From assembly GCA_030549175.1 (NCBI GenBank), contig JAUKUA010000014.1, positions 1 through 21,614 of the forward strand: DNA of 21,614 nucleotides, written 5' to 3'. The notes beneath the pieces are model-generated. The model searched no databases and was not told where the DNA came from. It saw only the letters and a program-made list of their open reading frames with translations. The translations under genes were made by a program, and so were the position numbers. Each line of letters opens with the position of its first letter. Position 1 is the stretch's first letter. The DNA is from Lasiosphaeris hirsuta (lineage: Eukaryota > Ascomycota > Sordariomycetes > Sordariales > Lasiosphaeriaceae). Positions 1 to 21,614 of this stretch are shown here, piece after piece.

Positions 1-192
1 TTGCGAAGATTAACTCCCTAAGTTCGTCGTATGAAATCTCTAAACTAGACTAATAGCAATTGTCGGAGTGGTTCGCTGAACGGTTAAGTCGAGAGTTAGG
101 AAAAGGTTAAAGCTCTGTAGTCTGACTCTCCATTTGATACCTCACCTTGTGGTTGTCACATCCTAGACCTTCGTGGGCTGGCCTGTGTCACA
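1..192 (+). repeat. 3' end of an LTR, family A (cut by window edge)
   Basis: This stretch matches the last part of the solo LTR at 8448-9771, with shared blocks such as GAGAGTTAGGAAAAGGTTAA and the closing CCTGTGTCACA. The LTR terminus falls at 192. The rest lies outside the window. It carries fewer C-to-T/G-to-A changes than most other copies. The DNA that follows (193 on) aligns to the interior of a related LTR, so this copy was probably inserted into, or recombined with, an LTR B. Confidence 0.85.
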
Positions 193-693
193 GATTAGTA
201 GGACGTAAGAAATGAGCAGTTAAGGCCTTAAGCCAGCGAAGCGGCTAAGGAAAGATCTTTAGATATTCTAATACCCTTATATATTATACATAACCTCTAT
301 AAAAGAGATAAAGGCCTATAACGGATCCTCAAGAGGAAAAAGCTCCCTAGTTCTTTTTAAAAATAACCTAGAAAGATTATCAGCTGAACTTTAGTGAAGC
401 TGAGAGATAATATAACCTTATAAACCCTTCTATTTCTTATTAACTTATAACTACGAAGTATCATTTGTCATCTTCCTTATAATCGTTCCATATCCCTATA
501 TCTACCTTCTCCCTCATAACTACCAGGACTTTAGGTTACGAAGATCATCTCCCTCACCTTGTGTAAAAGCTCTGAGTTAGACTAACATCATTACTGGCTT
601 AGAGTGGACGGTTAAGTTGATCTAGATCATAGCTCTACAGTTTGGTTACACTGAAGGTGACACCCCAGCCCTCGGTGGCTGGCCTGTGTTACA
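193..693 (+). repeat. 3' part of an LTR, family B
   Basis: From 193 the sequence follows the middle of the LTRs at 7201-8319 and 8448-9771 (shared GGATCCTCAAGAGGAA, CTCCCTAGTTCTTTT and AGAAAGATTATCAGC). It ends at 693 in CCTGTGTTACA. The last 100 bases resemble the 7201-8319 copy more than family A, so I treat it as subfamily B. The 5' part is missing, replaced at 192/193 by the end of an LTR A. It is less RIP-altered than the B copy on the other side of the island. Confidence 0.8.
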
Positions 694-859
694 TTAATAT
701 AAGCTTAAGTTAAAAAATAATTATATACTTTATATAAGAAAAATATACTTTTGTTATTCATTTTATTATAAAGATAATATTATATTTCCCTAGAATCATA
801 AAGAAGATTAGAAAGATGAAGAAACAAACTCCAGCACTCTATAATACACAAAGAATGAC
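694..859. other. AT-rich transition into the gene island
   Basis: Very AT-rich DNA follows the LTR B end and grades by about 800-850 into normal composition. I see no gene. It is probably the decayed flank of the LTR. Confidence 0.5.
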
Positions 860-1222
860 TTGCTCAGACTACCTATTCTAGCTCTCTTTGTGATGTTAAT
901 GCTGATGTTGATCTTCATCTTTATGATCCTGATCTTCATCTTCAATTCTTCCACTCTAGACTCACGTTATCATGCATGCTCCTCATTCTACTCTCTCAAG
1001 CTATTACCAATTATCCCAATCATTCCAATCATGGAGGTCATCGAGGTCGTTGTCGTCGTCGTTATGGTGGAGATGCTCTAGATTGTGATTGTGATTATCG
1101 AGATTGTAAAACCAATCGTCGTCGTCCTCGTTGTCATCCTCCTCCTCCACATCCCCCCACACTTGATGCTTTTATACTGAGGTCGAAACGCTAAAGTCAG
1201 TCTGCGAAATCTTAGGCTCAGG
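860..1222. other. Low-complexity GAT/GTC trinucleotide region, no confident gene
   Basis: The stretch is rich in GAT, CATC, GTC and TCC triplets. On the minus strand about 1176-1004 reads as an open, very acidic Asp/Asn/Glu-rich segment (runs such as EEEDDNEDDDDW) that ends in a stop. On the plus strand short hydrophobic or His/Arg-rich frames overlap it. Triplet-biased DNA gives open frames by chance, so neither is called. The minus-strand segment lies just downstream of the stop of the 1223-1582 reading frame and could be a separate remnant. Confidence 0.4.
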
Positions 1223-1582
1223 TTAGCTTACAACATCCTCATGAGGTCCCCCAGATACGTAATTCCCTTCCAAACTACGACGACTCAACCAGTATGTTTC
1301 TTGGGAGATATCTGTGACTGTGGGTTCTTTTTTACTCACATTTATTTTCTTTTTTGCAGGCGCTGAGGCGTGACGTTAATTAGACTCGTTTTCAGATGCT
1401 AATAACGCACTCACCCCCAATCCCTCATGATACTCGGAATACCGTTGACTCATGAAAGACTCAATCTCTAGTCCTGGCTCTGGGATAAATCGTGAGATTC
1501 CTGGTCGTGAGCCTGGGAATCGTGAGATTCGTCCTGAAATTTGCGCCTCAAAAACTGCCGCTTTTAACCCCAGATTTCCCAA
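1223..1582 (-). pseudogene. Unrecognised minus-strand gene-like C-terminal region
   Basis: I do not recognise a family. On the minus strand a reading frame (LGLKAAVFEAQISGR ... MSQRYSEYHEGLG) reaches a GTGAGT donor at 1414. A 52-bp candidate intron (1363-1414) ends in CCTCAG and contains the only in-frame stop between the two halves. Beyond it comes a lysine-rich segment (APAKKKINVSKKEP), then SQETYWLSRRSLEGNYV, with a TAA stop at 1223-1225. Joining the exons at these sites puts them one base out of phase: the donor follows a run of five G, and six would restore the frame. An AAG acceptor further on would also keep frame. Upstream on the same strand, about 1583-1913, are further protein-like but frame-broken pieces, including an acidic DKDDEDNKDNDE run. 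It could be a decayed MAT-locus neighbour or chance. Confidence 0.3.
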
Positions 1583-2160
1583 AAACTTGTGCCAAGGAGC
1601 TCCTGGACCACAACCACAGGATGTGGCAATTGGGATAATGCCACTCGTCGTTGTCTTTGTTGTCTTCGTCGTCTTTGTCTTCGGCCTCGTTTCTGATCAT
1701 CACCGACCCGTCCACGATTTTGGTATCTTACATGCCCAGAAGGAAGCCAGGCCGGCCAATTCAGTTTTTGTGAAGCTCGTACGCAGTTTTAAAGGTTTCC
1801 ACAAGCCTTTGCCCTCCTTGAACCATTTTTTGGAGCTATATGTTGCCACAAGGCAGCTCAGTGACTTTTTCGAGAAAATCCAGGTATGCGAGGATGTTCT
1901 TGGGACCACGTGAACTCGTGGAGTTTGAGTTATCTCATACTCGAGATCTTCAATTGACGTATTGAAGGATTCTCATTCTAAGTGTTATTCATTTTAACGT
2001 TGGGCTTCAAGTTATCTCAGTCTCAGTGGGGATTTCCCAACGTTCAACACTGCAAATGAAGCTAATGTTTCTGGGCGACTGGCTGTCCAATCATCTTCAT
2101 TTATCATCTCGCTTACCGCGCTAAGGAAGAAAAGGTTAAGTGTGACAGTGTTAATTATTG
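1583..2160. other. Gene-like but unresolved stretch upstream of the HMG gene
   Basis: Normal-composition DNA with short open frames on both strands and no recognisable domain. On the minus strand, pieces such as NILAYLDFLEKVTELPCGN (about 1905-1850) and LVETFKTAYELHKN look protein-like but sit in frames interrupted by stops. I looked for a MAT1-1-1 alpha box and for the usual MAT neighbours APN2 and SLA2 and found none. A CCAAT pentamer lies at 2087-2091. Confidence 0.35.
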
Positions 2161-2496
2161 ACGGCGGGTGCGAGAACAAAGACGTATCACGTGGCTTTTT
2201 CATTTCCAATTTCTTTCACTCTACCCCTCTCTCCCGCTAATTTTCTTTCTTCCTACTTCATCCTTTTCCACCAATTCTTCTTTCTTCCTACTTCACCTTT
2301 TTCTACCAATTCCTCTTTTCTTTCCTTCTTACCTTTCCACAAAACTCATCAGGGCCCAGTAAATTTGCCAACGACACTCCCATTCCCAATTATCACCCCT
2401 TATTCTTTGGAGTCTGGTACTTCAATTCCCCTCAATCATCAATTATTGAGTTCCGTGCTTGAATCTCAATTTTGAACTTCCCATTACCAATTCATT
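2161..2496 (+). promoter_or_regulatory. Pyrimidine-rich promoter/5' leader of the HMG gene
   Basis: A long C/T-rich tract on the coding strand (about 2195-2345), followed by mixed sequence up to the candidate ATG at 2497. Such tracts are common just upstream of filamentous fungal transcription starts. It lies outside the 153-bp inverted repeat, so only the plus-strand HMG gene has it. No TATA box or defined operator can be assigned. Confidence 0.45.
2243..2312 (+). repeat. 35-bp tandem duplication in the leader
   Basis: Two adjacent 35-bp units (2243-2277 and 2278-2312) begin with TTCTTTCTTCCTACTTCA and end with ACCAATTC, differing at only a few positions. A shortened third start (CTCTTTTCTTTCC) follows. 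Each unit contains a CCAAT pentamer. Confidence 0.8.
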
Positions 2497-2679
2497 ATGT
2501 CAAAACAGTTCAAAATGGAAATTCATGATCCCGCTTGGGTCCTTCAAACCGTGGCCGAACACTGGAGTTATTATCTGCTCAGCTTGGTCACTGGAACGCG
2601 AAGAATATATCGCGATAGATTCTCCCATGTACCGTCGACTTCCCAAGCCCGTCCTCACAGGCCTATCTTCTGAGGCTTC

Positions 2680-2725
2680 GTAAGTTCCATTCCCTACTTT
2701 CTTTTCTTTTCTGACATTGCTTCAG
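2680..2725 (+). other. Intron 1 of the MAT1-2-1-like gene
   Basis: 46 bp, with a GTAAGT donor at 2680, a CTGAC branch-point-like motif at 2711-2715 and a TTCAG acceptor ending at 2725. Splicing joins the ...LTGLSSEAS frame to KTLGTDCIWLRDGCN without a break (phase 2, serine TC|C), and this is what supports it. Confidence 0.8.
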
Positions 2726-2747
2726 CAAAACACTCGGAACCGACTGC

Positions 2748-2900
2748 ATATGGTTGCGCGATGGTTGTAACACAGATATTTATCTACTCGGTCCGAAGAC
2801 AACGTTTGAGCCAGATATCATTACTATCAACGATGTCATTTATTGGGACCCAAAACAAGCCCAGATCCCCCCTCAGATTCCGCCGACCATTCTCCCCGTC
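2748..2900 (+). repeat. Left arm of a perfect 153-bp inverted repeat
   Basis: Compared base by base, 2748-2900 equals the reverse complement of 4949-5101 at every position. Identity stops abruptly on both sides (2747/5102 and 2901/4948). The arm lies wholly within exon 2 of the MAT1-2-1-like gene and codes for the tail of CIWLRDGCNTDIYLLGPK through PPQIPPTILPV. At 153 bp it is shorter than the few-hundred-base duplications usually needed to trigger RIP, which may be why it is intact. Confidence 0.97.
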
Positions 2901-3005
2901 ATTAAAGAAAAAGTATCACGACCCCCAACGCCTACATTTTGTACCGTAAGGACAAACACAAGGAGCTGAAGGAGAGCCACGGTGGGATTCATAATAATGA
3001 GATCT

Positions 3006-3053
3006 GTGAGCGTCTCTTAACAATTTACTCCTCTATGTTACTAATTCTTTCAG
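3006..3053 (+). other. Conserved HMG-box intron of the MAT1-2-1-like gene
   Basis: 48 bp. The donor GTGAGC follows ...AATGAGATCT, ACTAAT is the likely branch region, and the acceptor is TTCTTTCAG. It interrupts the serine codon of NNEIS (phase 1). Its length is a multiple of three and it contains no in-frame stop, so an unspliced transcript would carry 16 extra residues inside the HMG box instead of terminating. Confidence 0.9.
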
Positions 3054-3675
3054 CCGTCCTCACTGGTGCCATGTGGAAGAACGAGACGCCTGAAGTTCGA
3101 GCGAAATACTACGCAAAATCTCTGGCTATGAAGGACGAAATTATCCGTCGACATCCTGAATACCGCTACAAACCACGAAGGTCGTCCGAGATCAAGAGAA
3201 GAAACCTGCCCCCAATGGCAGGAAAAAATAAGTTTGAGCTCAAGCAGTATAACGTTCGAAGACGAAGGCTGGCCTCACCTGTTGACCCCGACGAAACGCT
3301 CTGCGACCTCTTCCCTGATGTCATAGACGTTGACAATAACGACAAACCCATACAACCGAAGGTCCCATGGTCGCCGTCGCTAGTCGACAGCGACCTACAG
3401 CCTTTCTTCACATCATCAAGCGACTTGTCCATGGTTGACCGAAGCGTGCTTTTTGGGCCTGCGTGCCCTGGGGCTGGGGAGTTTTGGGCTGATTCCTGGG
3501 GAGCTCGGGGTGGGAACAAGCTGTAAAAACTCTTCCTCAACTTGACTCCATCTCCCTCATTCAACGCCTATTCACCCTTCTGGCTGCAGAGTTCACGGCC
3601 GTGATTCACGACAATCAGGTCATTGTTCGAATCACGCCGTCTGGTTCGCCGATGATGCAGTACTTTTTGGAATAG

Positions 3676-4072
3676 GGAGCAGGTTATGGACAATACGAGT
3701 GAGTTTTTCTCTCTGGTTATAAATTTTTCCTCTCTGCCACACAAATCTAACAAATCAGGATGATGACTGGGAAGAGCGTGCTTGCGCAGAGTTCCACAGG
3801 GGAGATTTTGATAGTTGGAGGGCCAGCAGGACTGGGTATTTTGGGGGGGGGTATTCAATTTTGATGGGTGGGTGTGTGTATTTTTTTCGTGGTTTTTGTG
3901 CTCTCTCATTCTAGGATCACGTATCTGAGCCGTGATGCAAGCTGGATACTTTTAACGTGGACTATGAAGCGCTAAACTACGAATGAAGCGCTATAGACTA
4001 CGAACTTAGAAATCTCAGAAATCACTTTATCACTGAACTTATCTCCTCAACAGCCTCCCTCGATCATCTCCA
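3676..4072. other. Convergent intergenic region between the two HMG genes
   Basis: It separates the 3' ends of the plus- and minus-strand HMG genes. A well-formed intron-like segment lies at 3699-3758 (GTGAGTTTTT donor, CTAAC branch at 3747-3751, ATCAG acceptor). It could be a 3' UTR intron, or part of a longer C-terminus if the TAG at 3673 is a mutation. A nine-G run is at 3843-3851, next to GT-rich sequence. A short direct repeat (ATGAAGCGCTA at 3964-3974 and 3983-3993, with ACTACGAA between and after) lies near 3961-4005. Confidence 0.5.
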
Positions 4073-5134
4073 TCATCTCCCTCCCATCTCAACCTCTCGA
4101 AACCTGACTCGATAGGGGGACTGAGACTGAATCTGAGTCTCAATCTCAGTCTTCGTCTCAGTCTTCTTCGTCGTCTCAATAGTCTTTGATGCTATCGACT
4201 TTGGGTGACCTCTGGGGTACTTCAGAGGCTTTCGTGGCTCGGTCCTCGCATATTGATATCCTGGATATTTCTCCTTGTGCTTCTTGTCTTCTTGTTTTGC
4301 AAGTTCAGAAAAATGTCGAATAACAGAGGCATCTTCTGATCGCCACATTTCACCAATGAGTTTGGCTGCCTGCGTTAGTAAAAACGATATTTGTGGATAA
4401 GAGAACTCACACAAAACCCCCGCTGTCAACCCTGGATTTTCTTTTCTCATACTCTTTGCCTTCCATTGTCGATACAACATGAATTTGTTTCTTGGGCGGG
4501 GGATTTTGGACTGTGAGTGAGGCTGCTGTCCTGGTTCTGTCCAAGATATCCATGTTAGGTCAGACTCTGACTCGCCTGGCTTTGACAAACAGGACGATGT
4601 CCAGGTTTTTGGGCATGTCGAGGCCAATGTCCAGTTTGCTGTCGAGTTTGTTGTCGAGTTTGCTGTTGTTGATGTCCAGTTTTTTGCCATTTGCCAATCC
4701 TTTCCTGCCCAGGAATTCTGGAAATTCTGTCCTGTATGGCCCCAGGAATCTTGCCCTGATGTTTGGCCTGCCCAGGAATCCTTTTGGCCAGAATCTTGTC
4801 CAGAAATCTTTCCAAGATTCCCAGCGTCCCCTCTCCACGAATCTGCTGAATCACCAAAACTTTGCCCTGCCCACGGAAAAGTCGAAAAATCCCAATCTGT
4901 GCCTGTGACTGTCCCTGCCTCTGTCTTTGTCTCTGTCTGCCGTCGTGCGACGGGGAGAATGGTCGGCGGAATCTGAGGGGGGATCTGGGCTTGTTTTGGG
5001 TCCCAATAAATGACATCGTTGATAGTAATGATATCTGGCTCAAACGTTGTCTTCGGACCGAGTAGATAAATATCTGTGTTACAACCATCGCGCAACCATA
5101 TCTCAAACGTTGTCTTCGGTCCGAGTAGATTTAT
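4073..5134 (-). CDS. Headless HMG-box gene, MAT1-1-3-like, fused to a MAT1-2-1 N-terminal segment
   Basis: A reading frame open from 5134 to a TGA at 4073-4075. From its N-terminus: a duplicated LLGPKTTFE piece, then the 153-bp repeat segment (WLRDGCNTDIYLLGPK ... PPTILPV) identical to the plus-strand gene. Next comes a low-complexity Gln/Trp/Ser/Thr linker of about 145 residues, then an HMG box: IPRPRNKFMLYRQWKAK, NPGLTAGVL, an intron at 4366-4410, SKLIGEMWRSEDASVIRHF, KYPGYQYARTEPRKPLK. The tail is Thr/Glu/Lys/Gln-rich. The intron has a GTGAGT donor and a TACTAAC branch and splits a serine codon, as in the other gene. The RPRNKF/ENPGLTAG style differs from MAT1-2-1 and resembles MAT1-1-3 as I know it. 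No ATG, first exon or promoter is visible; a TAG at 5135-5137 closes the frame upstream. It may be a silent 3' cassette, a pseudogene, or use an unseen start. Confidence 0.75.
   Translation of the reverse strand: MNLLGPKTTFEIWLRDGCNTDIYLLGPKTTFEPDIITINDVIYWDPKQAQIPPQIPPTILPVARRQTETKTEAGTVTGTDWDFSTFPWAGQSFGDSADSWRGDAGNLGKISGQDSGQKDSWAGQTSGQDSWGHTGQNFQNSWAGKDWQMAKNWTSTTANSTTNSTANWTLASTCPKTWTSSCLSKPGESESDLTWISWTEPGQQPHSQSKIPRPRNKFMLYRQWKAKSMRKENPGLTAGVLCEFSYPQISFLLTQAAKLIGEMWRSEDASVIRHFSELAKQEDKKHKEKYPGYQYARTEPRKPLKYPRGHPKSIASKTIETTKKTETKTEIETQIQSQSPYRVRFREVEMGGR
4366..4410 (-). other. HMG-box intron of the minus-strand gene
   Basis: 45 bp. The donor GTGAGTTCTC begins at 4410, a perfect TACTAAC is at 4380-4374, and the acceptor GGCAG ends at 4366. 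Using this second CAG gives T|CC serine followed by KLIGEMW. The nearer CAG (ending at 4370) would lead to an early stop. The length is divisible by three and stop-free, as for the matching intron in the plus-strand gene. Confidence 0.8.
4949..5101 (-). repeat. Right arm of the 153-bp perfect inverted repeat
   Basis: Exact reverse complement of 2748-2900. It reads in frame into the minus-strand HMG gene. The left arm is preceded by exon 1 and intron 1 of MAT1-2-1. This arm instead borders directly on the hairpin at 5102-5161, so it is cut off at its 5' coding end. Confidence 0.97.
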
Positions 5135-5161
5135 CTACTCGGACCGAAGACAACGTTTGAG
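5102..5161. repeat. Perfect hairpin: 29-bp arms, 2-nt loop
   Basis: 5102-5130 is the exact reverse complement of 5133-5161, with TT between. Each arm is a further copy of the 29-bp segment found inside the inverted repeat (2782-2810 and 5039-5067), differing at one base in the centre of CGG(A/T)CCG. That segment therefore occurs four times in the window, three of them within 5039-5161. Confidence 0.95.
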
Positions 5162-5450
5162 CATATCTGCCTCTGAAATAAATGATGACATGAATGTCCC
5201 TGTTTCCAACGAATCTCCTGTCGAATTCTCTGACATCAATGCTGTCGAATCTGTCGTCGTCGTCTCTCTCCCAAGAATCCGTCTATCTCCCTGTCTCTGT
5301 CCTCGTTAGAAAAGTCCAGAGTAGAATGGTATTGAAAAGGCAGAAAACCTCGACTAAGATTGAGTCCAAGACAAAGGACAAAAAGATAAAAGTAAAGTGG
5401 CAGACAGAAATATAGGGAGACTAACCTCCAGATACTTAGATCCTTATTGT
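5162..5450. other. Island edge: unassigned open frames after the hairpin
   Basis: On the plus strand the hairpin arm (LLGPKTTFE) ends after a few codons at TGA in its own frame. A second frame stays open with an acidic start (ASEINDDMNVPVSNESPVEF) and stops after SPCLCPR. A third overlaps it with a Lys-rich end (QKTSTKIESKTKDKKIK) and stops at 5413-5415. No domain is recognisable. These could be remnants of a third MAT-gene fragment joined at the hairpin. Composition falls to AT-rich from about 5430. Confidence 0.4.
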
Positions 5451-7200
5451 TTCATCTAGTCACTATTTACTATCGATTTCTAATTCGTCCCATTGCAGAT
5501 GTTTGGCTTATTTTGGGTTAATTTATATGTTAAAAATACGAGACTTGTATTAAGAGTGTTATTTATCTATAATCTTAATAATTTTCATTGATAACATAGC
5601 TCTTTATATTAAATATATTAAAAGAACTATCTTATACCCAATCTTAATGATATTAATTGAAGTTTATAGTTTAGCTCTTATTTTAAATACGCTAAAATAT
5701 TTAAGACTTATCTTATACGAATTATCTTTAAAATTGATCGTAGAAATTTTACTTTATTAGCTAACATCTTACATTAAATATATTAAAAATTTAAAACTTT
5801 TGTTAAGAACTGTAATTTTATACTTTATTTTAGTACTCTTGATTTATTACCAACGTTATTTTAAATATATTGAAAGATTTCAAAACTTTTATATAATAAC
5901 TATTTCATTATTTAATAGTATTAACCTTGACTAGTAATTATCATTATTTAACTATTGCCTTAATATATAAAGAATATATAAGACTTATTTTAAGATATGG
6001 TTTTATACGTAATCTTATTAATCTTAATTTAACTTTGAAATTTAAATATTCAAGATATATTTTGACAATTATCTTTATAGTTAATCTTTACAATCTTAAT
6101 TTATAATCTAACCATTTTATTTAAATACGTTGAACTTATTTATTACTTACCTTAGGAGATCTATTACCGTTCTACTTAATCTTAGTAATTATCATTGAAA
6201 TTTATAGTTTAATAATAACTATTATCTTCACATTTAATTTTAATAATTTTTTATATAAGCTTATGAGCTTATACAGCTTTTCTTAAATTAAATAACTTTA
6301 AAATAATTGATACTTATTTTGTTTAAACTATTGTCTTATAATAAGTTATAGTAAGTTTAATTTACGTTTATAATTATTATTTATATAATTAATCTTAAAA
6401 ATCTTAATTGAAGGTTATAATTACTTACCTCTTTATATTCAATGTCTTTTCCATATGTAAGATATTTAAAACTATTACTTCATCTTAATAAGTACTTAAC
6501 TTAAGATTAAATATGTTAAAAGTATTTAAGCCTTATTATTAAAACTTTTATCATCTTACAAAAATATAGGGTTTAAGTTAATAATTTACAGTTAACCATT
6601 TTATATTATATAATATAATACATCTTTAAAAACATATGTCTTACTTAATTTCTTTTACTCAATATATTAATATAACTTAAATGTTAACTATACGAGCTTT
6701 AACTTTATCTTCCTCAGAAATCTTTACTATAGTAAGTATATAATCTTACTTAGAAAATATCATCTTCTATAATAGTTATTAACCTTAGTAAGTCCTTAAT
6801 GAACGTTTTAGTCGTTAATTAACTCTATTATATTTGGCACCTTGGAAAATCTTAAGCTACGCTCTTTATTATACTTAACCTTAACTACCTTTCATTACCT
6901 TATAATTTATTTTACTCTTACTATAATAAACTCTTTGAAATATTAAAACTTTTAATTTTAGAAGAACTATTTTATTATATTTCATGACCTTATGAATCTT
7001 CATTTATCTTTATACTTAATCATCGCAGCATTAATTTTAATTTCAAGTTACGTACCTTTTCATATTAAATACATTAAACCTATATAAGATGTATCTTCTA
7101 AAAAGATTATATTATACTTAAACTAAGTAATTATAATTTATTACGTAACTCATTTTTCAAGTACATATATTTTTGACTTAATCTTATTAACCATAGTTTA
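5451..7200. repeat. Very AT-rich, strongly decayed tandem-repeat block
   Basis: No gene. A blurred period of very roughly 80-100 bp is visible: TTAAATATATTAAAA-type starts recur near 5610, 5690, 5780 and 5860, with TAATCTTA and GTTTATAGTTTAG between them. Near 6660-6780 the text (AAATGTTAACTATACGAGCT; AGAAATCTTTACTATAGTAA; TATAATCTTACTTAGAAAAT) lines up with the better preserved array at 10754-12625, so both blocks are probably one repeat family. The extreme lack of G and C fits heavy RIP. Confidence 0.6.
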
Positions 7201-8319
7201 TATCACACTGTTAGGCTTACCTAAGGTTAACAGGGTAACTTACTCCTCTAACTTAAGCCCACAGTGATGGCTACATTGTAGCTCAACCTATGGAACACAC
7301 ACACCTAGATTCACACTAATAGGTTTATACGACTTCATGAAGCGGAACTAAAATCTACGAGGGAACTAAGGGATATTTAGGCTAGGCCTCGGGAACTTAA
7401 GTACTACTCATAAGATGATCTGGCCTACCTAGTGGACCTAGCCTACACTTAGTATGTTATCTGACTTTAGAATTGTTATATACGGCCGTATAACCTTAGT
7501 ATTGTAGTCAAGAGTTACATTAGCTGCTAAAAGACCTACCTAATATTTCAACGGTTTTTTAAATGACAAACCTCTTAGCTATTGTAATAGCTTTAGTAAA
7601 AACCTAAATCCTGACATTTCTAGAGTCTAACTTTAGTAGTAACAAATATCAGTAGTTAAACCTCTATAAGTCATAAAGAGAAACGTTATCATTTGACGAA
7701 AGTACTAAGAACGTAAAGGAACCTTCGTAGTCAAGAATATCATGTTATTGGAGTAAGTATTAATATCGGCTGTAGACTATTCGGCTATAGACTATTAAGA
7801 AGAAGGTTAATAGTACTTAACTTAAACCTTAATTTATAAGATGTAAGAGATAAGTGACTAAGGTTCTATACTGGTAGGTAACTAAGGAATGATCTTTATA
7901 TATCTAGCCTTTATAAGAGACGAAGGTTCTATAATCGATCCTCAAGAGGAAGAAGCTCTCTAGTTCTTTTTAAAATAGCTTAGAAAGCTTATTACTTAAA
8001 CTTTAGTAAAGTTAAGAGGTATATAACTTTATAACCCTATTTACTTCTTATTAACTTATAATTATAAAATATCGTCAATTATCTTTTTTATTATCGTCTT
8101 ATCTCCTTAAATCTACCTTCTTTCTTATAACTATTAAGACTTTAAGTTATGAAGATTATCTTTCTTACTTTATAAAAGCGCTAATTTAAACTAATATTAT
8201 TACTAGCTTAGAGTAGATGGTTAAGTTAATTTAGATCGTAGTTTTATAGTTCGGTTATACTAAAGCTAATATAACTTGTGATTATTATATCTTAGTCTTA
8301 GTAACTACCCTATGTTATA
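7201..8319 (+). mobile_element. LTR, family B, heavily RIP-altered
   Basis: It begins TATCACACTGTTAGGCTTAC, the counterpart of TGTCACACTGGTAAGCTCAC in the solo LTR A, and ends in CCCTATGTTATA, the counterpart of CCTGTGTTACA at 693. Most differences are C-to-T or G-to-A. No internal region is recognisable on either side and flanking bases show no clear target duplication (GTTTA versus AATAA), so it is a solo or fragmentary LTR with decayed ends. Confidence 0.8.
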
Positions 8320-8442
8320 AATAATCTTTTTACTTTAAAAATACTTACTTTAATAATGACTAAGATAATATCTTTACTCTTCTCTAACTTAAACGTTATA
8401 ATAATTTAGGAAAGAGAGCTTAACGTAACTACAGAAACGAAA
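8320..8442. other. Short AT-rich spacer between two LTRs
   Basis: AT-rich sequence between the end of the LTR B and the target duplication of the solo LTR A. It looks like more of the surrounding decayed array. No gene. Confidence 0.5.
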
Positions 8443-9776
8443 CTTATTGTCACACTGGTAAGCTCACCTAGGTCAACAGGGTCACTGACCCCTTGACCGA
8501 GCCCTACACCAGTGGCACGAACTACATACATACACATACCCATTGACCCACAAACATCTATCATAGATTACGTGGATAAGGAAACTATCACAGAGGATGG
8601 CCACAACGTGGCTCAACCTCGGAACATGATCCCACGTGTGGCTAATAGCCTATTCAGCCCACACACAGGTCAGCGGATCCCCCGAAGCACCTACGGGTTA
8701 CGATAGAATACCCAGAACCACTCACAAGCCAGAGTAGCCATACAATAGATCTCACCCGTGCTAAGTAACGTTATCAGACTTTAGATTTGTCATAAACAAG
8801 CTACTTAACCTTAGTATCGTGGTCAGAGCCTACACAACCAGCCCAGACCCTGTAGCTAGCCTTTTAAATCATAGACCTCACTACTATCGCTGGCATTCCT
8901 TTGGAAGACCTAGAACCCGCCGTTCTCCGGAGTCTAGCTTCAGTGGTGACAAGTAGTCGTGACCCCCGTGTGTAAGTCACGAAGGGAACCGTTGCTATGA
9001 CAGCCGATATAGGATCGACCTAACAGTGCTATAGCCAACGTAAGTACTAAGGACGTGAAGGAACACCTATAGCAATAGATACCACGTTACTAAAGCTATA
9101 TGGATAAGTACTAATACCGGCCGTGGACCGACGTGTAATAGGCCGGCTTCACTTAGCTTGTAGCCGTTGATTTGTAGGGCGTGAGAGACGGGCGGCTAGA
9201 AAGGAGATTCAGGACCGACGGACAGCTAGGAAGATCTTTTAGGTATTTTAATATCTTTATATCCTATACATAACCTTCCATAAGTAGAACAGGTACGCTA
9301 CGACGGATCCTTAAGAGGAAGAAGCTCCCTAGTTCTCTTTGGACAAAACCTAGAAAGATTATCAGCCGAACTTCAGTGAAGCTGAGGGGTAATATAACCT
9401 TATAAACCCTTCTGTTTCTCCTGACTTGTAACTACGAAGCATTGTATCTTATCTTCTGTTAGATCATTCCATCTCCCTAAACCTCCTTCTCCCTGGCTCT
9501 CCACCACTTTACATTACGACAGTTAACTCCCTCACCGTTCTGTTCTAAACCTCTGAATCAGACCTTGAGCTTATTAGCCTTACGACGATTAAGTCCCTAA
9601 GTTCGTCGTGTGAAAGCTCTGAACTAGACCAACAGTAATTGTCGGGGTGGTTCGTTAAACGGTTAAGTCGAGAGTTAGGAAAAGGTTAAAGCTCTGTAGT
9701 CTAATCCCTCATTTAATATCTCACCTTGTGGTTATCACACCCCAGACCTTCGTGGGCTAGCCTGTGTCACACTTAT
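8443..9776 (+). mobile_element. Solo LTR, family A, with perfect 5-bp target duplication
   Basis: The LTR itself is 8448-9771 (1,324 bp), starting TGTCACACTGG and ending CCTGTGTCACA. It is bracketed by CTTAT at 8443-8447 and again at 9772-9776. A 5-bp duplication is typical of Ty3/gypsy integrases. There is no internal region, so the element was reduced to one LTR by recombination between its two LTRs. It has the highest GC and the fewest RIP-like changes of the full-length family A and B copies here, which marks it as comparatively young or less exposed. A 64-codon open frame at 8512-8706 lies inside it and is not supported as a gene. Confidence 0.92.
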
Positions 9777-10322
9777 AATTTATGGATTTTTTAAGATAAC
9801 TGTTATAATTATTAAGAAATATCAATTACTTTCTTAAACCTCTCAAATTATCTCTAATATACCTAGATAACTTACAGAAGCTTACTAGTTAATAGTAAAT
9901 ATATGTTAAGAACTTCGTTTTTATATAATTAACGTCTAAAACAATAAAAGCTAGTTTAATATCTTAGTTAATAACTTACTACTTTGGATTATACATATAT
10001 GAAAGAACATAGCGAAGGGCTTTGAGATTATTACCATGTACATTATAACCTCTCGCATTCATACGAAGGTAAGGCTTATGAAATTCGTTACAACTTGTAA
10101 CCTTGTAGAACGATTTAATACCATACAATTTGTAACAAGAATAACTAACGGATATTACGATTTTAAAAATTGAGATAATGTTAGTAGAGTCGTGATAACA
10201 AGCGGTAAAGAGACGAGGTTTCTTAGTAACACAATTGTTAAGTATGATACAAAAGGAAGAAGGAAAAGGTTTATCCCGTAGTCCTTTATAAGAAAAGAAC
10301 CGAGGAAAAGGAAGGAGGTACG
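9777..10322. other. AT-rich stretch, possible remnant ahead of LTR C
   Basis: The first 150 bases resemble the surrounding array (AAGAAATATCAATTAC). The rest is unassigned and has no open frame of note. It contains a 15-bp palindrome (GTTACAACTTGTAAC, near 10088) and ends in a purine-rich tract (GGAAAAGGAAGGAGGTA) directly before the LTR C start. That could be a polypurine tract with the tail of a decayed internal region. Confidence 0.35.
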
Positions 10323-10753
10323 TATCACATCCTATTTCATACTAAGAAGTCATATGATATGGAGCGTGAGATTAGATGGCGAAGTAACTAATTAACAATG
10401 TAGGTAGAGAAGAATACTCTTACTCTCCTTACACTTTGCTACAAAGTAACAGAATAAGTAGGTCAAAGGATATAATCTACTTAGTACGACTACCTTCTAA
10501 ATAGATACAAATTGCTAACGTATAGACACCTTAGAACGTGAGGATTCGTATTCCTACGTAAATAATTATATTTTATTATATCCCAAGGTACTACTTCACA
10601 ACTCTGTTAATAATAATCTGTTTGACAGAATGTGACACACGTCTAAGAACTTTACCTTCAAATTAATCAATCCCTTCATCCACTTAGGCGTTCTACCTTA
10701 CGATCTATTATTCAACACTGAGTAATCTATTACTCAGTGCACAGGTTGTAACA
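10323..10753 (+). mobile_element. LTR, family C, copy 1 (RIP-altered)
   Basis: It starts TATCACATCCTATTTC and ends ACAGGTTGTAACA, matching the copy at 11795-12268 along its length, including CAATCTGTTTGACAGA-like and AGGCGTTCT blocks. It is shorter than copy 2 through internal deletions. Flanks show no clear target duplication. Near its 3' end is an 11-bp-arm hairpin (CACTGAGTAAT, CT, ATTACTCAGTG). Confidence 0.8.
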
Positions 10754-12625
10754 GAAATATCAATTATAGACACAGGGCTTTGTAATCTAGTCTACCATAA
10801 CTCTCCCATCCTCCTTTACGTTAGATAAACCTTGGGAAATCCAAAGTGTAGGCGGCTCCGTGAGCGTGTAACTTTACCTAAGAAATAGGTTACCTTCCTC
10901 TAATCTATCTTTTCATATCTCAATATGAGCTTAAGAAATCTTAACTATAGGTAGCTCTGTAAGCATGAAATCTTACTTAACTATCATCTTCCTTTATACT
11001 CAACGACCTTAAAGAAATCTTAACTATGGATAGCTCTATGAGTGTATACTCTTACCTAAGAAATATCTCATTCTCCTTTTGCATTTAACGACCTTAAGAA
11101 ATCTCAACTGTAGGCACTCTATGGGGGCTGTCAAGGCTTTAAAATCTAACTAAGAACTATTATCTTCCCTCATCTGCCTTTTAAATATTAATACGGCCTC
11201 AAATGTTAACTGTGGAGCTCTGTGAGCTTGCAATCTATCCTAAGAACCATTTTGATACTACCTCAAATCTTAACTCTTGGCGTTGTAATCTCTCAATATG
11301 AGCTTAAAGAAATCTCAACTGTGAGGCTTTGTAAACGTCTCTATGGGCTGATGGTTTGTTTATCTAACACTCCTCCTTCATACGTTAGATATATCCTTGA
11401 CAAATGTTAACTAGGTAGCTTTATAAGTATATAATCTTACATAAGAAACATCTTGATACGGTCTTAAATCTTAACTCTGAACGTTATAATCTACTTACCC
11501 AACTCTCTTATCCTTCTTTAATACTTGATAGGTAAGAAATATTAATTCTAGATATTATATTTAACCTAAGAACCATCTAGATACAACCTTAAAGAAATGT
11601 CAATTTTAGACGGCTCTATAAGTGATATAATCTTTTTACCTAACTCTCCTTACGTTAGATATACCTTAAGAACTACTGGAGACTTTATAATCTTGCCTGG
11701 AATTATCATCTACCTCTCATCTACCTTTGCATCTTAATATAACCTTAAATTTTAACTATTAGCGGCTTTATACGTTGTAATCTTACTAAGAAATTGTCAC
11801 ATCCCACTTCGTGACAAGGAGTCATGTGACATAGAACACATAATTGGACGGCGGAACAGCCAATCGTACGACGACGCTCTCGTGCTCTCTCCACTCTGTC
11901 ACGGAGCGACAGAGCAAACAGATAAGGACGCTCCTAGTTCCCCAGCACTCCCACACAGGGCAGCAGAGTAGGCAGATCAAAGAATACAATCTACTTGATA
12001 TGACTACCCACTAGATAGGTATAAGTAGCCAACGTATTAGACACCTTGGAGCGTGAGGATTCTTGTTCCTCACGCAAGCAATTACATTCTGCTGTATCCC
12101 AAAGTTTACTCTATAACTCTGGCGATAGCAATCTGTTTGACAGAGTGTGAACCCCGTCTAAGAACCTTACCTTCCAATTAATCAATCCTCCCGTTCTATT
12201 AGGCGTTCTGCCTAGCGATCTGTCATTCAACACTGAGTAGCCCTCTACTCAGTACACAGGTTGTAATAGAAATATCATCCTCTTTTATACTTAACGACTT
12301 TAAGAAATCAAACTATAAGTATCTCTATGGCTAAAATCTATTTCTTAACTTTCCTCTATACTAAATATAACCTCAAAGAATCTTAACTATATGTAGTTAA
12401 TAAGCTTTAATCTATTTACCCTCTACTATTCGGCTTATCTACGTTTTCCACCTTTACCTCGACAACCTTAAATATTAACTATAGGTTATAATCTTAAGAA
12501 ATATCAACTCTAGTTATTATAATCTTACTTAAGAATTATCCCGTATGACCTTAAAGAAATTTCGAGATAGCTCCATACACGATGTAATTTATTTACCTAA
12601 CTCTCTTCTTTTATAAAAGATATAA
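10754..12625. repeat. Degenerate tandem array, units of roughly 85-110 bp
   Basis: Recurring blocks in the same order and orientation: (GA)CCTTAAAGAAATCTTAACT, then TAGGTAGCTCTGTGAG or similar, then TATAATCTTACCTAAGAA, then a pyrimidine-rich ATCATCTTCCT segment. I see more than ten units of varying length, well separated in sequence. The array is interrupted by the solo LTR C (11795-12268) and its right end by the Fot1-like element. No coding signal. It may be a satellite, or an old tandemly repeated element, now eroded by RIP-type change. Confidence 0.75.
11790..12273 (+). mobile_element. Solo LTR, family C, copy 2, with perfect 5-bp target duplication
   Basis: The LTR is 11795-12268, starting TGTCACATCCCACTTCG and ending CAGGTTGTAATA (TG...CA form before mutation). 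It is flanked by GAAAT at 11790-11794 and 12269-12273. The insertion splits a unit of the tandem array. It contains a 9-bp-arm hairpin near its middle (GCGTGAGGA ... TCCTCACGC) and another near the 3' end (ACTGAGTAG ... CTACTCAGT) that matches the one in copy 1. It has fewer RIP-like changes than copy 1. Confidence 0.88.
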
Positions 12626-12628
12626 CGT

Positions 12629-13589
12629 ACGTGATAAGCGAGTGATACAGATAAGCGAGTGACACACTTTCTACCACCTCAATATAACCAACGTCAATTA
12701 CACAACCATAATACTAGGAAACAACAATAACTAAATCAGAAACAGATGAATCAGACGACTCTACAGCCTCCTTACATGTACGTACATTATAGCCAGGCCT
12801 TCCGTACACGCTACAGCACCGAATCTTCGTACGAGACCCCCCTGAACCACTACCATTTTGCCGTGTTTCCTAAATTACCTACTCACCCATAGCCTTCTGA
12901 TCCAGTAGATCCTATACCTCTTGTACAGTAAGTAACCCTCTAAGCCGTACACGTGTTTTTTTAGCTCTCCGTCACTTACTAAGCCCCTTATTAGCCTTTC
13001 GAAGTACTGAGACCTCTATACGTAGAAAAGCCACTTCGTATATCACAGCCATCGTACCTTTAGCTAATTGGTCCATAGTAGTTAACATTAGGGTTAGAGA
13101 GCTACCTTGATAGTTAGAAATTTAAGTTTTGATAAATGCTGACTATGAGTTAGCCTCTCGAGGGTTATATAATGTTTAGGAGATCTAATATAATACTGTA
13201 GTTAGGCTTGAGGCTAGGGGTGTTAGAGTCCGGATACGCACATCCAACGTAGATATTACCCTCTCTGGGTCGTATGGTATAAGACCGGCTCTAGTAAAAC
13301 CTTTCTAGATATTCTTTTCTATGATCGAAGTAAAAAATACTTCTTTAAACTTACAAAGAAACTTTAACTTACTGATATGTATAATGTTTATCCGTATCAA
13401 CTACTTAATTTAGTAGCTATACACTTTCTTTAACGGCCTAAAACAACTAACATCTAATGGCTAAAGTAGATGTGAAGAGTACGGAGGTATATAGAGTATG
13501 ATGATATTATACTCCTGGCAGTAGGTCTCGAATTCTTCGGAGTGGTAGCTATCGTAGCCGTCGAGAATCAACAGTCGGTATATACCTTT
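12629..13589 (-). mobile_element. Fot1/pogo (Tc1-mariner superfamily) transposon, 3' half
   Basis: The minus-strand coding remnant at 13589-12714 is followed by a terminal region at 12629-12670. That region holds two direct copies of GATAAGCGAGTGA with a variable ACA, which I take as the terminal/subterminal repeat next to a TA dinucleotide at 12628-12629. The 5' half is missing because the chromovirus inserted at 13590; if retained it lies beyond the window. The element sits in the right end of the tandem array. Confidence 0.75.
12714..13589 (-). pseudogene. Fot1-like DDE transposase, C-terminal half, RIP-inactivated
   Basis: DDE transposases of this group cut and rejoin the transposon ends at TA sites. 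Visible in one frame on the minus strand: RLLILDGYDSYHSEEFETYC (second catalytic Asp), then IIILYIPPYSSHLL*PLDV (third Asp in PLD; the stop sits where the family has Gln), then GLIPYDPERVISTLDVRIRT. The end is the usual C-terminus RVRLRGLLTVQEV*DLLDQK and RCCSVYGRPGYNVRTCK, with TAG at 12714-12716. About ten in-frame TAA/TAG codons, several at expected CAA/CAG or TGG sites, are what RIP produces. The N-terminal DNA-binding domain and the first Asp are absent, cut off by the LTR at 13590. Confidence 0.9.
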
Positions 13590-14901
13590 TGTGACACAAG
13601 CCAGCCCTAGGAGGTCTGGGGTGTGACAACTACAAGGTGAGATATCAAATGAAGAGTCAGACTGTAGAGCTTTAACCTTTTCTTAACTCTCGACTTAACC
13701 GTTCAGCGAACCATCCCGACAATTGCTATTGGTCTAGTTCAGAGCTTTCACACGATGAACTCAGGGACTTGATCTTCGCAAGGCTAATAAGCACAAGGTC
13801 TGATTTAGAGGTTTAGAACAGAACGGTGAGGGAGTTAACTGTCGTAATGTAAAGTGGTAGAGAGCCAGGGAGAAGGAGGTTCAGGGAGATGGAATGATCT
13901 AACAGAAGATAAGACATAATGCTTCGTAGTTATAAGTCAGGAGAAACAGAAGGGTTCACAAGGTTATATTACCCCTCAGCTTCACCGAAGTTCAACTGAT
14001 AATCTTTCTAGGTTTGTCCAAAGAGAACTAGGGAGCTTCTTCCTCTTGAGGATCCATCGTAGTATACCTGTCCTACTTATGGAAGGCTATATATAAGATA
14101 TAAAGATACCAAAATACCTGAAGGATCTTCCTAGCCGCCTGTCGGTCCCGAATCTCCTTTCTAGCCGCCCGTCTCTCGCGCCTTACAAATCCGTGGCTAC
14201 ATACTAAGTAAAGCCGGCCTATTACACATTGGTCCATGGCCAGTATTAGTACTTATCCATATAGCTTTAGCGGCATAGTATCTATTGCTATAGGTGTTCC
14301 TTTATGTCCTTGGTACTTACGTTAGCTATAATGCTATTAGGTCGATCCTATGTCGGCTGTCATAGTAACGGTTCCCTTCGTGACTTATACGTAGGGGTCG
14401 CGGCTACCTGTTACTACTAAAGCTAGACTCCGGAGAACGTCGGGTTCTAGGTCTTCTAAAGGAATGTTAACGATAGTAAGGAGGTTTATAATTTAAAAGA
14501 CTAGCTGTAGGGTCTAGGTTGACTGTGTAGGCTCTGACCACGATGTTAAGGTTAAATGGCTTGTCTATGACAAATCTAAAGTCTAATGACGTTATCTAAC
14601 GTAGGTAAGATCTGTTATACGGCTACTCTAACTCGTGAGTAGTTTTGGTCATTCCGTCGTAACCCGTAGGTACTTATGAGAATCCGCTGACCTACGTGCC
14701 AGCTGAGTAGGTTACAAGCTACGTGTAGGATCATGTCCTAAGGTTAAGCTATGTTATAGCCTTTCTCTGTGATAGTTCCCTTATCTACGTAATCGTGGGT
14801 TAATAGATATATACTTTTTGTATATAGTTCGTGCCGTTAGTATAGGGCTCGGTCAAGGAGGTCAGTGACCCTGTTAACCTAAGTGAGCTTACTAGTATAA
14901 T
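13590..14901 (-). repeat. 3' LTR of the chromovirus
   Basis: 1,312 bp. On the minus strand it starts TATTATACTAGTAAGC (decayed TGTCACACTGGTAAGC) and ends GGCTTGTGTCACA at 13590. The half nearest 13590 is well preserved and close to the solo LTR A. The half nearest the internal region is more AT-rich. Confidence 0.9.
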
Positions 14902-14917
14902 ACCATCCCCCCTCCTA
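14902..14917 (-). other. Polypurine tract
   Basis: On the minus strand a purine run (AGGAGGGGGGATGG) abuts the start of the 3' LTR. That is the position and composition expected of the primer for plus-strand DNA synthesis. Confidence 0.75.
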
Positions 14918-17900: not shown

Positions 17901-18598
17901 GAAGTAAAGATTTTAAATCTTTCGGAGATATTTAAAATGTAGGAAGTCGTAACGTTTACGATAGAGCTTTTACTTCCTAAGATCATAAAGGAAATATAGT
18001 TTTGTCAATAGTAGTCGGAACTGAAAGCTACTTTCGTTATGTTAAGATCCCATAGGTAATCTGGCTAATACTATTATAACTACTAGTATAGAAGAAGGAT
18101 GTCATATTCTATGTCAAGGGGAGAGATTTCGAACGTGATATAAGAGAAGTATTTTACTTAGTACTATAAAACAATTTCCTTAGTATACTCCTTATCTGAT
18201 TTAAGGTTGATAGTTCTATTAAAGGCTTCTAAGGGTTTTAGGATCGTTTTACATTTGTAAGAGATGTTTTATTTTTTAACAAGGTTTTTACTTATGACCG
18301 GGCTAGAGGTACTAGGATCTAAGAGTACTTAGACAGGGATTTCCTCAGCTCCATAGTAGACGATAGTCATAGGGACGATCTTATAAGTACCATAATATAG
18401 TTCATAGTTTCGTTTAACCTTCTTACGAGAGGGTTTCTCTATGTTATAGTTGGTACGTTTTTTAGTAAAGGTACGGCGGGTCGAGGTATGATTCCCGATG
18501 CCGCGAGTTTCGGGATACCTATTAAAAATCCGATATATCTTCGCTATCGGATAGTTTAATAATATGAGGAAAGAGTTTGGAGGGTCTTTTTCTGTCAT
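14918..18598 (-). pseudogene. pol: Chromovirus pol (protease-RT-RNase H-integrase-chromodomain), many stops
   Basis: Minus-strand landmarks, N- to C-terminal. Protease-like VYYGAEEIPV*VLLDPSTSS (about 18370-18300), where DPST probably decayed from D-(S/P)-G-A by G-to-A changes. Reverse transcriptase with YIDDFLIYTSSKMEHDK (YIDD codons at 17332-17321), ELEYLGYIIN and FVNFYRYYIKGY. RNase H start KAFTEASILVYF, then PIIELNTSDYTLEE (about 16950-16850). Integrase core with LIDFIIDLS, VIIDTFTKIVHF (about 15960-15935), HGIPFDIISDRDLRF (SDRD at 15826-15815) and an eroded SQTKR. C-terminal chromodomain EKFVVEEIINSYTKK, YLVKWDRYPEEKD*T*EPY (about 15140-15010), which can target integration to marked chromatin. 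Dozens of in-frame stops make it non-functional. The open frame at 18598-18329 is a surviving piece just upstream of the protease. Confidence 0.9.
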
Positions 18599-20971: not shown

Positions 20972-21614
20972 TGTGATATAGGCTAGCTCTAAGAGATCTA
21001 GGATGTAATAACCATAAGGTAAGATATCAAATAAAGAGTCAGACTATAGAACTTTAACCTTTTCTTAACTTTCGACTTAACCGTTTAACGAACTATCCTA
21101 ACAATTATTATTAGTCTAATTTAGAGCTTTCACACGACGAACTTAAGGACTTAATCTTCGTAAGGCTAATAAGTATAAGGTCTAATTTAGAGGTTTAGAA
21201 TAGAACGGTAAGGGAGTTAACTATCGTAATATAAAGTAATAGAGAGCTAGGAAGAAAAAGGTTTAAAGAGATAGAATGATCTAACAGAAGATAAGACATA
21301 ATACTTCGTAGTTATAAGTTAGGAAAAAGAAGGGTTCATAAGGTTATATTATCTCTTAACTTCACTAAAGTTCAGTTAATAATCTTTCTAGGTTTGTCTA
21401 AAGAAAACTAGGGAGCTTCTTCCTCTCGAGATCTATCGTAATATACCTGTCCTACTTATAGAAGGCTATGTATAAGATATAAAGATACTAAAATACCTAA
21501 AGGATCCTCCTAGCTACCCGTCGGTCCCGAATCTCCTTTCTAGCTACCCGTCTCTCACGTCCTACAAATCCGTAGCTACATGCCAAGTAAAGCCGGCCTA
21601 TCACACGTTAGTCC
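20972..21614 (-). repeat. 5' LTR of the chromovirus (3' half; cut by window edge)
   Basis: On the minus strand this LTR ends at 20972 (TATATCACA, decayed TGTGTCACA). It aligns along its visible length with 13590-14240, for example AAGAGTCAGACT and AACCTTTTCTTAACT blocks. It has clearly more C-to-T/G-to-A changes than the matching part of the 3' LTR. Confidence 0.9.

What the first reader, a model, noticed from the sequence alone, without database searches (positions are those of the whole stretch)
2748..5101. Perfect coding inverted repeat that could swap the HMG half of a mating-type gene by inversion
Seen: two 153-bp arms, identical at every base, in opposite orientation, 2,048 bp apart. 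Both encode the same N-terminal segment and both read in frame into an HMG box, a different one on each side. Only the left arm has exon 1, intron 1 and a promoter-like leader; the right is headless. Known: MAT inversion between inverted repeats occurs in Sclerotinia sclerotiorum and in methylotrophic yeasts. Inference: inversion here would join the single expressed head to either the MAT1-2-1 HMG box or the MAT1-1-3-like box, giving two alternative regulators from one promoter. I know of no described MAT locus that exchanges protein halves in this way.
Basis: partly seen in the sequence, partly recalled or inferred. Interest (0 to 1): 0.9.

Follow-up and report, generated by a model that had tools for sequence, protein, structure and literature searches.

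The report
Mating-gene inversion swaps DNA-binding halves
In the fungus Lasiosphaeris hirsuta one genome assembly holds the same 2-kb piece of the mating-type region in both orientations between two identical inverted repeats, and each flip is predicted to join the one gene start to a different DNA-binding half, which would likely switch the mating identity of a nucleus.

Summary
The 153-bp arms are real, identical, inverted and 2,048 bp apart. The window is a complete 21.6-kb contig (C6) of an assembly that, by one named protein, is Lasiosphaeris hirsuta (Sordariales). The same locus lies inside the 6.7-Mb contig C7 with the inner 2,048 bp in the opposite orientation. With the inside flipped, C6 and C7 align end to end with 0 substitutions and 49 one-base indels, mostly in homopolymers. 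So one assembly, and very likely one culture, holds both orientations. In C6 the only start-bearing head (exon 1 plus arm) leads into the MAT1-2-1 HMG box. In C7 it leads, open as far as the HMG intron, into a MAT1-1-3-like HMG box. A MAT1-1-2 exon lies beside it, the MAT1-1-1 alpha box 127 kb away, and COX13 and SLA2 matches lie on either side. Best reading: a reversible switch deciding which HMG regulator the single head makes. Cautions: the MAT1-2-1 frame is one base short in both contigs, at different homopolymers; no reads or RNA were available. Inversion at MAT is known (Sclerotinia). Swapping the DNA-binding half behind a shared N-terminal domain turned up in none of nine paper searches.

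The parts
2748..2900 (+). left arm of the perfect inverted repeat; encodes residues 70-120 (strand part and linker) of the MAT1-2-1 N-terminal region
4949..5101 (-). right arm, identical in reverse complement; headless copy of the same coding segment
2901..4948 (.). 2,048-bp invertible segment; reversed in contig C7 (4885351-4887398)
2497..2679 (+). exon 1 of the shared head with its ATG; two bases shorter than in C7
   Evidence: gene model by inspection, homologous to MAT1-2-1 N-termini
2680..2725 (+). predicted intron 1 (gtaagt...cag, 46 bp)
2726..3005 (+). exon 2: end of head, left arm, first half of the MAT1-2-1 HMG box (frame one base short as printed)
3006..3053 (+). predicted intron 2, splitting the HMG serine codon T|CC
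3054..3526 (+). second half of the MAT1-2-1 HMG box and C-terminal region, open frame
4411..4948 (-). MAT1-1-3-like gene: 148-codon low-complexity linker and first half of its HMG box, in frame with the arm
4366..4410 (-). HMG intron of the MAT1-1-3-like gene, at the same serine codon (T|CC) in the named protein model
4073..4365 (-). second half of the MAT1-1-3-like HMG box and C-terminus
1426..1667 (-). MAT1-1-2 exon (PF17043 over its cut-off in C7:4883874-4884116); window coordinates converted from C7 by the differences
   Evidence: a 75-aa piece alone scores 17 bits, under the cut-off
5102..5161 (.). 29-bp palindrome made of two copies of an arm segment, at the outer edge of the right arm

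Best explanation
This is an inversion switch at the mating-type locus: one assembly carries the 2,048 bp between the two identical arms in both orientations, the flip likely arises by recombination between the arms, and it is predicted to give the single start-bearing MAT1-2-1 head either the MAT1-2-1 HMG box or a MAT1-1-3-like HMG box. Shown: both orientations, the identity of the arms, zero substitutions otherwise, the single head, and the open frame from the head to the first half of the MAT1-1-3-like box in C7. Inferred: the flip happens in living nuclei by homologous recombination and is reversible; only the box joined to the head is made at full length; the headless half is silent. Inferred further: because the MAT1-1-1 alpha-box gene lies outside the flip, orientation A (window) makes a nucleus with MAT1-1-1 plus MAT1-2-1, and orientation B (C7) makes one with MAT1-1-1 plus the MAT1-1-3-like protein. 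That is the FPR1 versus FMR1/SMR2 choice that serves recognition between nuclei in Podospora.
For: Two orientations in one assembly: window 1-2900 and 4949-21614 match C7 directly, while 2748-5101 matches it reversed. With the inside flipped, all 21,614 bases align with 0 substitutions and 49 single-base indels, 45 of them C6 shorter and 44 beside an identical base, so C6 is a second assembly of the same locus and not a diverged copy. A true duplicate would be expected to differ in the RIP-type flanks (inference): 18 of 22 blocks of 1 kb have a positive composite RIP index, and the four negative blocks are 1001-5000, the locus. The head plus arm aligns with the N-terminal region of MAT1-2-1 in 17 of the 18 hits, weakly in P0017 and P0018; the 18th, P0001, is the window's own protein and was left out. 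In a model of the Cercophora relative the fold ends near residue 99, followed by a low-confidence linker and HMG helices from 127, so the swap point falls in the linker. The arm-to-HMG spacer on the MAT1-1-3-like side is 444 bp, in frame and open; 154 of 5000 dinucleotide shuffles are open. MAT context on C7: MAT1-1-2 exon about 0.8 kb left of the ATG, MAT1-1-1 alpha box at 5014605, COX13-family match at 4.677 Mb, SLA2-domain match at 5.095 Mb. FPR1 and FMR1/SMR2 carry internuclear recognition in Podospora (PMC3036917, passage).
Against: No reads: C6 is of single-read length and could rest on very few molecules. The MAT1-2-1 frame is broken by one base in both contigs. C7 also needs a different acceptor site in the MAT1-1-3-like HMG intron. 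In Sclerotinia the inversion was not seen during mycelial growth and Inv+ strains still self (PMC3574095). No RNA and no second isolate. The MAT1-1-3 label rests on position and intron; searches found no relative but its own record. The headless MAT1-1-3-like half has an internal ATG before its HMG box and might be made anyway.
Confidence: 0.68

Rival explanations
1. The inversion is real but passive: recombination between a chance inverted duplication flips the segment, and the MAT1-2-1 tail, the fused MAT1-1-3-like gene or both are decaying leftovers with no regulatory role.
For: Neither contig has an intact frame from arm into the MAT1-2-1 HMG box; the linker of the MAT1-1-3-like fusion is low-complexity; MAT1-1-3 is dispensable for fruiting bodies in Sordaria macrospora, where SmtA-3 lacks the HMG box (PMC7344243, passages).
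Against: The two frame breaks lie in different homopolymers, and taking the longer run at each gives an open frame reading VSRPPNAYILYR, the family motif. The MAT1-2-1 HMG box is 33-48 of 71 identical to 17 relatives and lies in an open frame of 206 codons in the window, its intron included. The fused gene is open to its HMG intron in C7.
Confidence: 0.17
2. C6 is an artefact: a chimeric molecule or assembly error made the second orientation, and the living fungus has only the C7 order.
For: C6 has about 2.3 indels per kb against C7, as expected of a low-coverage contig, and is one of four contigs of 21-30 kb; the other three also look like alternates of main contigs.
Against: A ligation chimera would not cross over inside both arms while keeping 2.7 kb and 16.5 kb of correct flank on the right sides. 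Repeats of 153 bp are far shorter than long reads (recalled). My arithmetic: the chance that one of four random contigs of this size spans the 2.35-kb locus is about 0.2%.
Confidence: 0.1
3. The culture is a stable mixture or heterokaryon of two nuclear types with opposite orientations inherited from the parents; flips are rare on the scale of generations. (Overlaps with the best explanation, which needs only that flips occur.)
For: Both orientations come from one assembly. Dikaryotic spores carrying both mating types are known in ascomycetes (PMC9949647, abstract start in a search listing). In Sclerotinia mycelia were of one orientation only (PMC3574095).
Against: Two long-separated types should differ by substitutions, most of all in RIP-prone flanks; there are 0 in 21.6 kb. 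A very recent flip remains compatible.
Confidence: 0.2

Closest known systems
Sclerotinia sclerotiorum MAT inversion (Inv- / Inv+), also proposed for Ciboria shiraiana
   Same: Identical inverted repeats made of a piece of a MAT gene flank a MAT segment that occurs in both orientations; single locus; the inversion changes which MAT coding sequence is complete (PMC3574095, sections read; PMC10569646, passages).
   Different: There the repeat is 250 bp of MAT1-1-1, the segment 3.6 kb, and the effect is loss of most of the alpha box. Here the repeat is 153 bp of MAT1-2-1, MAT1-1-1 is outside, and the two orientations give one head two alternative HMG boxes.
MAT inversion in methylotrophic yeasts (Hansenula polymorpha, Pichia pastoris)
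   Same: Inversion between inverted repeats chooses which of two MAT loci is active (stated in PMC5608430, passages).
   Different: There whole loci exchange an active and a silent place; here a gene is cut in the middle and the headless half is inferred to be silent.
Deletion switching in Chromocrea spinulosa and Sclerotinia trifoliorum
   Same: Repeat-driven change of MAT content among the offspring of one parent (PMC5608430, passages and abstract start; PMC4891775, abstract start in a listing).
   Different: Direct repeats and one-way loss; here inverted repeats, nothing lost, reversible in principle.
Sordaria macrospora MAT locus with the hybrid gene SmtA-3
   Same: Homothallic Sordariales with genes of both idiomorphs and a hybrid mat A-3 gene (PMC3036917, passages).
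   Different: SmtA-3 has a mat A-3 5' end and a mat a-like 3' end without HMG box; here a mat a-1 head joins a mat A-3-like HMG box and the join is invertible.
Bacterial inverting hsdS genes and shufflons (recalled, no call)
   Same: Inverted repeats inside a coding sequence swap the recognition half behind one start.
   Different: Bacterial; often with a dedicated recombinase. No recombinase was looked for here.

Membership tests
Sclerotinia-type MAT inversion | identical inverted repeats derived from a MAT gene flank a MAT segment | tested here: met
Sclerotinia-type MAT inversion | both orientations exist, otherwise identical in sequence | tested here: met
   (two contigs of one assembly, no isolates; 49 one-base indels, 0 substitutions)
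Sclerotinia-type MAT inversion | single-copy locus, not two loci | tested here: met
   C6 aligns end to end with C7 with 0 substitutions; the search found no further full arm copies. Read depth not seen
Sclerotinia-type MAT inversion | MAT1-1-1 is truncated by the inversion | tested here: not met
   the MAT1-1-1 alpha box lies 127 kb outside
Sclerotinia-type MAT inversion | 1:1 segregation among ascospores | not testable with these tools
   needs progeny
Homothallic Sordariales MAT locus | MAT1-1 and MAT1-2 genes in one genome between COX13/APN2 and SLA2 | tested here: met
   matches to COX13 family, MAT1-1-2, MAT1-2-1, MAT1-1-1 and SLA2 domain in that order on C7; an APN2 neighbour was not found (GRF domain matches on C1 and C9 only). 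Selfing itself not tested
MAT1-2-1 | Sordariales MAT1-2-1 N-terminal region plus MATA-type HMG box with an intron at the conserved serine codon | tested here: met
   frame one base short in each contig
MAT1-1-3 | MATA-type HMG protein next to MAT1-1-2, not a copy of MAT1-2-1 | tested here: inconclusive
   HMG box and neighbour met, about equally far from MAT1-2-1 and other HMG boxes; no MAT1-1-3 reference could be compared
Deletion-type switching | direct repeats and loss of MAT1-2 genes | tested here: not met
   the repeats are inverted and both orientations keep all sequence

The most novel reading that the evidence does not exclude
A reversible DNA inversion acts as the nuclear-identity switch of a self-fertile fungus: one start and one N-terminal domain are handed alternately to the MAT1-2-1 (FPR1-like) or the MAT1-1-3 (SMR2-like) DNA-binding box. 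The two regulators are thus never made by the same nucleus, and genetically identical nuclei become unlike partners.
Probability: 0.42. Interest if true: 0.92.

Novelty: new variant of a known kind. Interest (0 to 1): 0.83.

Why it matters
How the nuclei of a self-fertile ascomycete, which carry the same genome, recognise each other as partners is an old open question (recalled). In Podospora FPR1 and FMR1/SMR2 serve recognition between the two nuclear types (PMC3036917, passage), and a cited paper's title states that co-expressing the recognition genes is lethal (Coppin and Debuchy 2000, title seen in a reference list only). An inversion that makes MAT1-2-1 and the MAT1-1-3-like gene mutually exclusive by sharing one head would make identical nuclei unlike in just this respect, and a simple PCR on single-spore cultures can test whether it flips. 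My nine searches of an open-licence library showed no such switch in Sordariales and no MAT locus that exchanges the DNA-binding half of a regulator in this way.

Tried and rejected
A duplicated second locus was considered and rejected: C6 aligns over its whole length with C7, with no substitutions. A chance repeat was rejected: 153 identical bases, coding on both sides, four full copies found in 44.4 Mb, all at this locus. That the MAT1-1-3-like HMG box is a recent copy of MAT1-2-1 was rejected: 30 bits between them, against 63-117 bits between the MAT1-2-1 box and its 17 relatives. Protein searches for MAT1-1-3 relatives found only the window's own record at E <= 0.001, among 678 and 9 candidates. 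A conserved APN2 neighbour was not found. A spliced start for the headless side was looked for by eye in three frames: there is a short frame ending at a stop inside the 29-bp palindrome, and no continuous start. A 90-aa piece beside the MAT1-1-2 exon gave no Pfam match, and a 75-aa piece of the exon itself gave MAT1-1-2 at 17 bits, under the cut-off of 26.3. A paper on Sordariales genomes tried by a recalled DOI is not held. Literature searches for Lasiosphaeris hirsuta with mating gave 0 papers, and for mating type switching with Sordariales and inversion 0 papers.
Full report
WHAT IS THERE. The window contains two 153-bp arms, 2748-2900 and 4949-5101, identical in reverse complement and 2,048 bp apart. 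The next-longest matches to the arm are a 34-bp and a 29-bp piece in a small palindrome just outside the right arm. The search of the whole genome found four full arm copies, two in this window and two on contig C7, at 4885198-4885350 and 4887399-4887551; the tool calls such counts lower bounds.

WHERE IT COMES FROM. The window is contig C6 of the assembly, 21,614 bases in full; the assembly has 14 contigs and 44.4 Mb. The only database protein found for the minus-strand gene, P0001, is named as a partial hypothetical protein of Lasiosphaeris hirsuta on a contig of 21,614 bases, a species of Sordariales.

THE KEY RESULT. Contig C7 (6.67 Mb) holds the same locus with the middle reversed. Window 1-2900 and 4949-21614 match C7 in the forward direction and window 2748-5101 matches it backwards. 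After flipping only the inner 2,048 bases in a script, C6 aligns with C7 from its first to its last base with 0 substitutions and 49 one-base indels. Of the 49, 45 are C6 shorter, 4 are C6 longer, and 44 lie beside an identical base; one further mismatch is a placeholder N that I put in for a base not fetched. C6 therefore looks like a thinly covered second assembly of the same place, and the C7 order is likely the commoner one in the sample (inference). The breakpoints lie within the arms; where in the arms cannot be told, since all four copies are identical.

CONTROLS. Four contigs are 21-30 kb long. The first 60 bases of each of the other three match the inside of a main contig at 100%, so the small contigs look like alternates of main ones, as far as those 60 bases show. 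By my arithmetic, four random contigs of this size would span the 2.35-kb locus with a chance of about 0.2%, so C6 was probably kept because of the inversion.

ANATOMY. Exon 1 (ATG at 2497; C7 4884945), a 46-bp intron and the left arm form a 120-residue head. The head aligns with the N-terminal region of MAT1-2-1; the search gave 18 hits, one of them P0001 itself, and the other 17 were aligned, 15 of them closely enough for the structure alignment A1 and two (P0017, P0018) more weakly. Identities to Cercophora newfieldiana (P0002) are 31 of 61 in exon 1, 17 of 51 in the arm and 38 of 71 in the HMG box; in the HMG box the range over the 17 is 33-48 of 71. A predicted structure of P0002 from 15 sequences (mean pLDDT 62.9, pTM 0.40, so weak overall) has a helix-and-strand domain up to residue 99, a low-confidence linker around 111-116 and HMG helices from 127. 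The arm thus covers the strand half of that domain and the linker, and the swap point falls just before the HMG box. In the window the head leads into the MAT1-2-1 HMG box (C6:2924-3031 and 3062-3166). In C7 it leads through 148 open codons into the other HMG box. A spacer of this composition is open in 154 of 5000 shuffles, so openness is moderate evidence only. Both HMG boxes are predicted to be interrupted by an intron at the same serine codon, T|CC.

FRAME PROBLEM, AGAINST THE READING. As printed, neither contig is open from the arm into the MAT1-2-1 HMG box. C6 has 5 A and 5 C, C7 has 4 A and 6 C; an open frame with the family motif RPPNAYILYR needs 5 A and 6 C. C6 is shorter than C7 at 45 of 49 places, so its missing C is probably an error. 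The missing A and a missing G in C7 are two of only four places where C7 is the shorter, and both lie in the inverted segment; mixed read orientations could have disturbed polishing there (inference). A true frameshift is not excluded. With the C7 letters the MAT1-1-3-like HMG intron would need the acceptor four bases upstream.

LOCUS CONTEXT. A MAT1-1-2 exon lies on the other strand about 0.8 kb upstream of the head (C7:4883874-4884116, 31.1 bits, cut-off 26.3); a 75-aa piece of it alone scored only 17 bits. The MAT1-1-1 alpha box is at C7:5014605-5014985 (116.8 bits), 127 kb away. The COX13 family (PF02046) matches at C7:4677205 and the SLA2 domain (PF01608) at C7:5094770. The order COX13, MAT, SLA2 matches the MAT position of other ascomycetes (recalled; PMC12734299 passages, give APN2 and SLA2 as borders). 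No APN2 neighbour was seen. The flanks are AT-rich with RIP-like composition: of 22 blocks of 1 kb (the last one shorter), 18 have a positive composite index, and the four negative ones are 1001-5000. Arms of 153 bp may be short enough to escape RIP (recalled from Neurospora, not tested).

THE SECOND HMG GENE. Its HMG box scores 30 bits against the window's MAT1-2-1 box and 23-45 bits against the 17 relatives and three other HMG loci of this genome that it matched, of seven given, so it is no recent copy of MAT1-2-1. I call it MAT1-1-3-like because it is an HMG gene of the mating-type kind beside MAT1-1-2. Two database searches found no relative other than its own record, so this label is not confirmed by comparison.

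HOW IT LIKELY WORKS. Shown: both arrangements exist in one assembly. Likely: recombination between the arms flips the segment in living nuclei. Predicted: only the half joined to the head has its start, so a nucleus makes either MAT1-2-1 or the fused MAT1-1-3-like protein. The MAT1-2-1 half has no in-frame ATG between the arm and its HMG box, while the MAT1-1-3-like half has one in its linker and could be made in shortened form. MAT1-1-1 is outside and constant. In Podospora FPR1 (the MAT1-2-1 protein) and FMR1/SMR2 (MAT1-1-1/MAT1-1-3) carry internuclear recognition (PMC3036917, passage). A flip would thus make nuclei with the same genome unlike. In Lachnellula the two mating types carry only MAT1-1-3 or only MAT1-2-1 (PMC10569646, passage), so this HMG pair may suffice for identity elsewhere.

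COMPARISON. Sclerotinia sclerotiorum is the nearest relative in mechanism: a 3.6-kb segment between identical 250-bp repeats, inverted in half of the progeny, leaving 15 of 197 alpha-box residues in Inv+ (PMC3574095: abstract and outline, section 5 part 1, section 14 part 1, section 20). Its authors already propose that the two orientations serve recognition between nuclei. They also report that Inv+ strains still self and that no inversion was seen during mycelial growth, two warnings: one orientation need not be sterile here, and a mixed culture need not mean flipping in mycelium. What differs here is the shared head with two alternative HMG boxes. Nine paper searches showed no described case of this; the library holds open-licence papers only, and of most papers I saw listings or passages.

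VERDICT. A real, very likely living inversion at a Sordariales MAT locus, a new variant of a known kind, with a predicted and untested exchange of DNA-binding halves.

Noticed in passing
5102-5161: A 29-bp perfect palindrome made of two copies of an arm segment abuts the right arm, perhaps a scar of the event that made the inverted copy.
   Followed up: partly
5135-5236, minus strand: Short frame with ATG (MSENSTGDSLETGTF...) that ends at a stop inside the palindrome; possibly a remnant of the original N-terminus of the MAT1-1-3-like gene.
   Followed up: no
G000 contigs C3 (30,392), C4 (26,228), C5 (24,315): Each begins with 60 bases that occur at 100% inside a main contig (C8:5758707, C1:1700543, C1:8605251); they may mark other structural variants or chimeras in this culture.
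   Followed up: partly
1-1000 and 5001-21614: AT-rich diverged repeats with RIP-like dinucleotide bias; most direct and inverted copies are 73-91% alike.
   Followed up: partly
G000:C7 4.68-5.09 Mb: MAT region spread over about 418 kb between the COX13 and SLA2 matches, with MAT1-1-1 127 kb from MAT1-2-1 and large AT-rich blocks between.
   Followed up: partly
G000:C7:4885878 and 4887388: Two of the four places where C7 is shorter than C6 lie in homopolymers at the two HMG boxes inside the invertible segment, which might reflect polishing with mixed orientations.
   Followed up: partly
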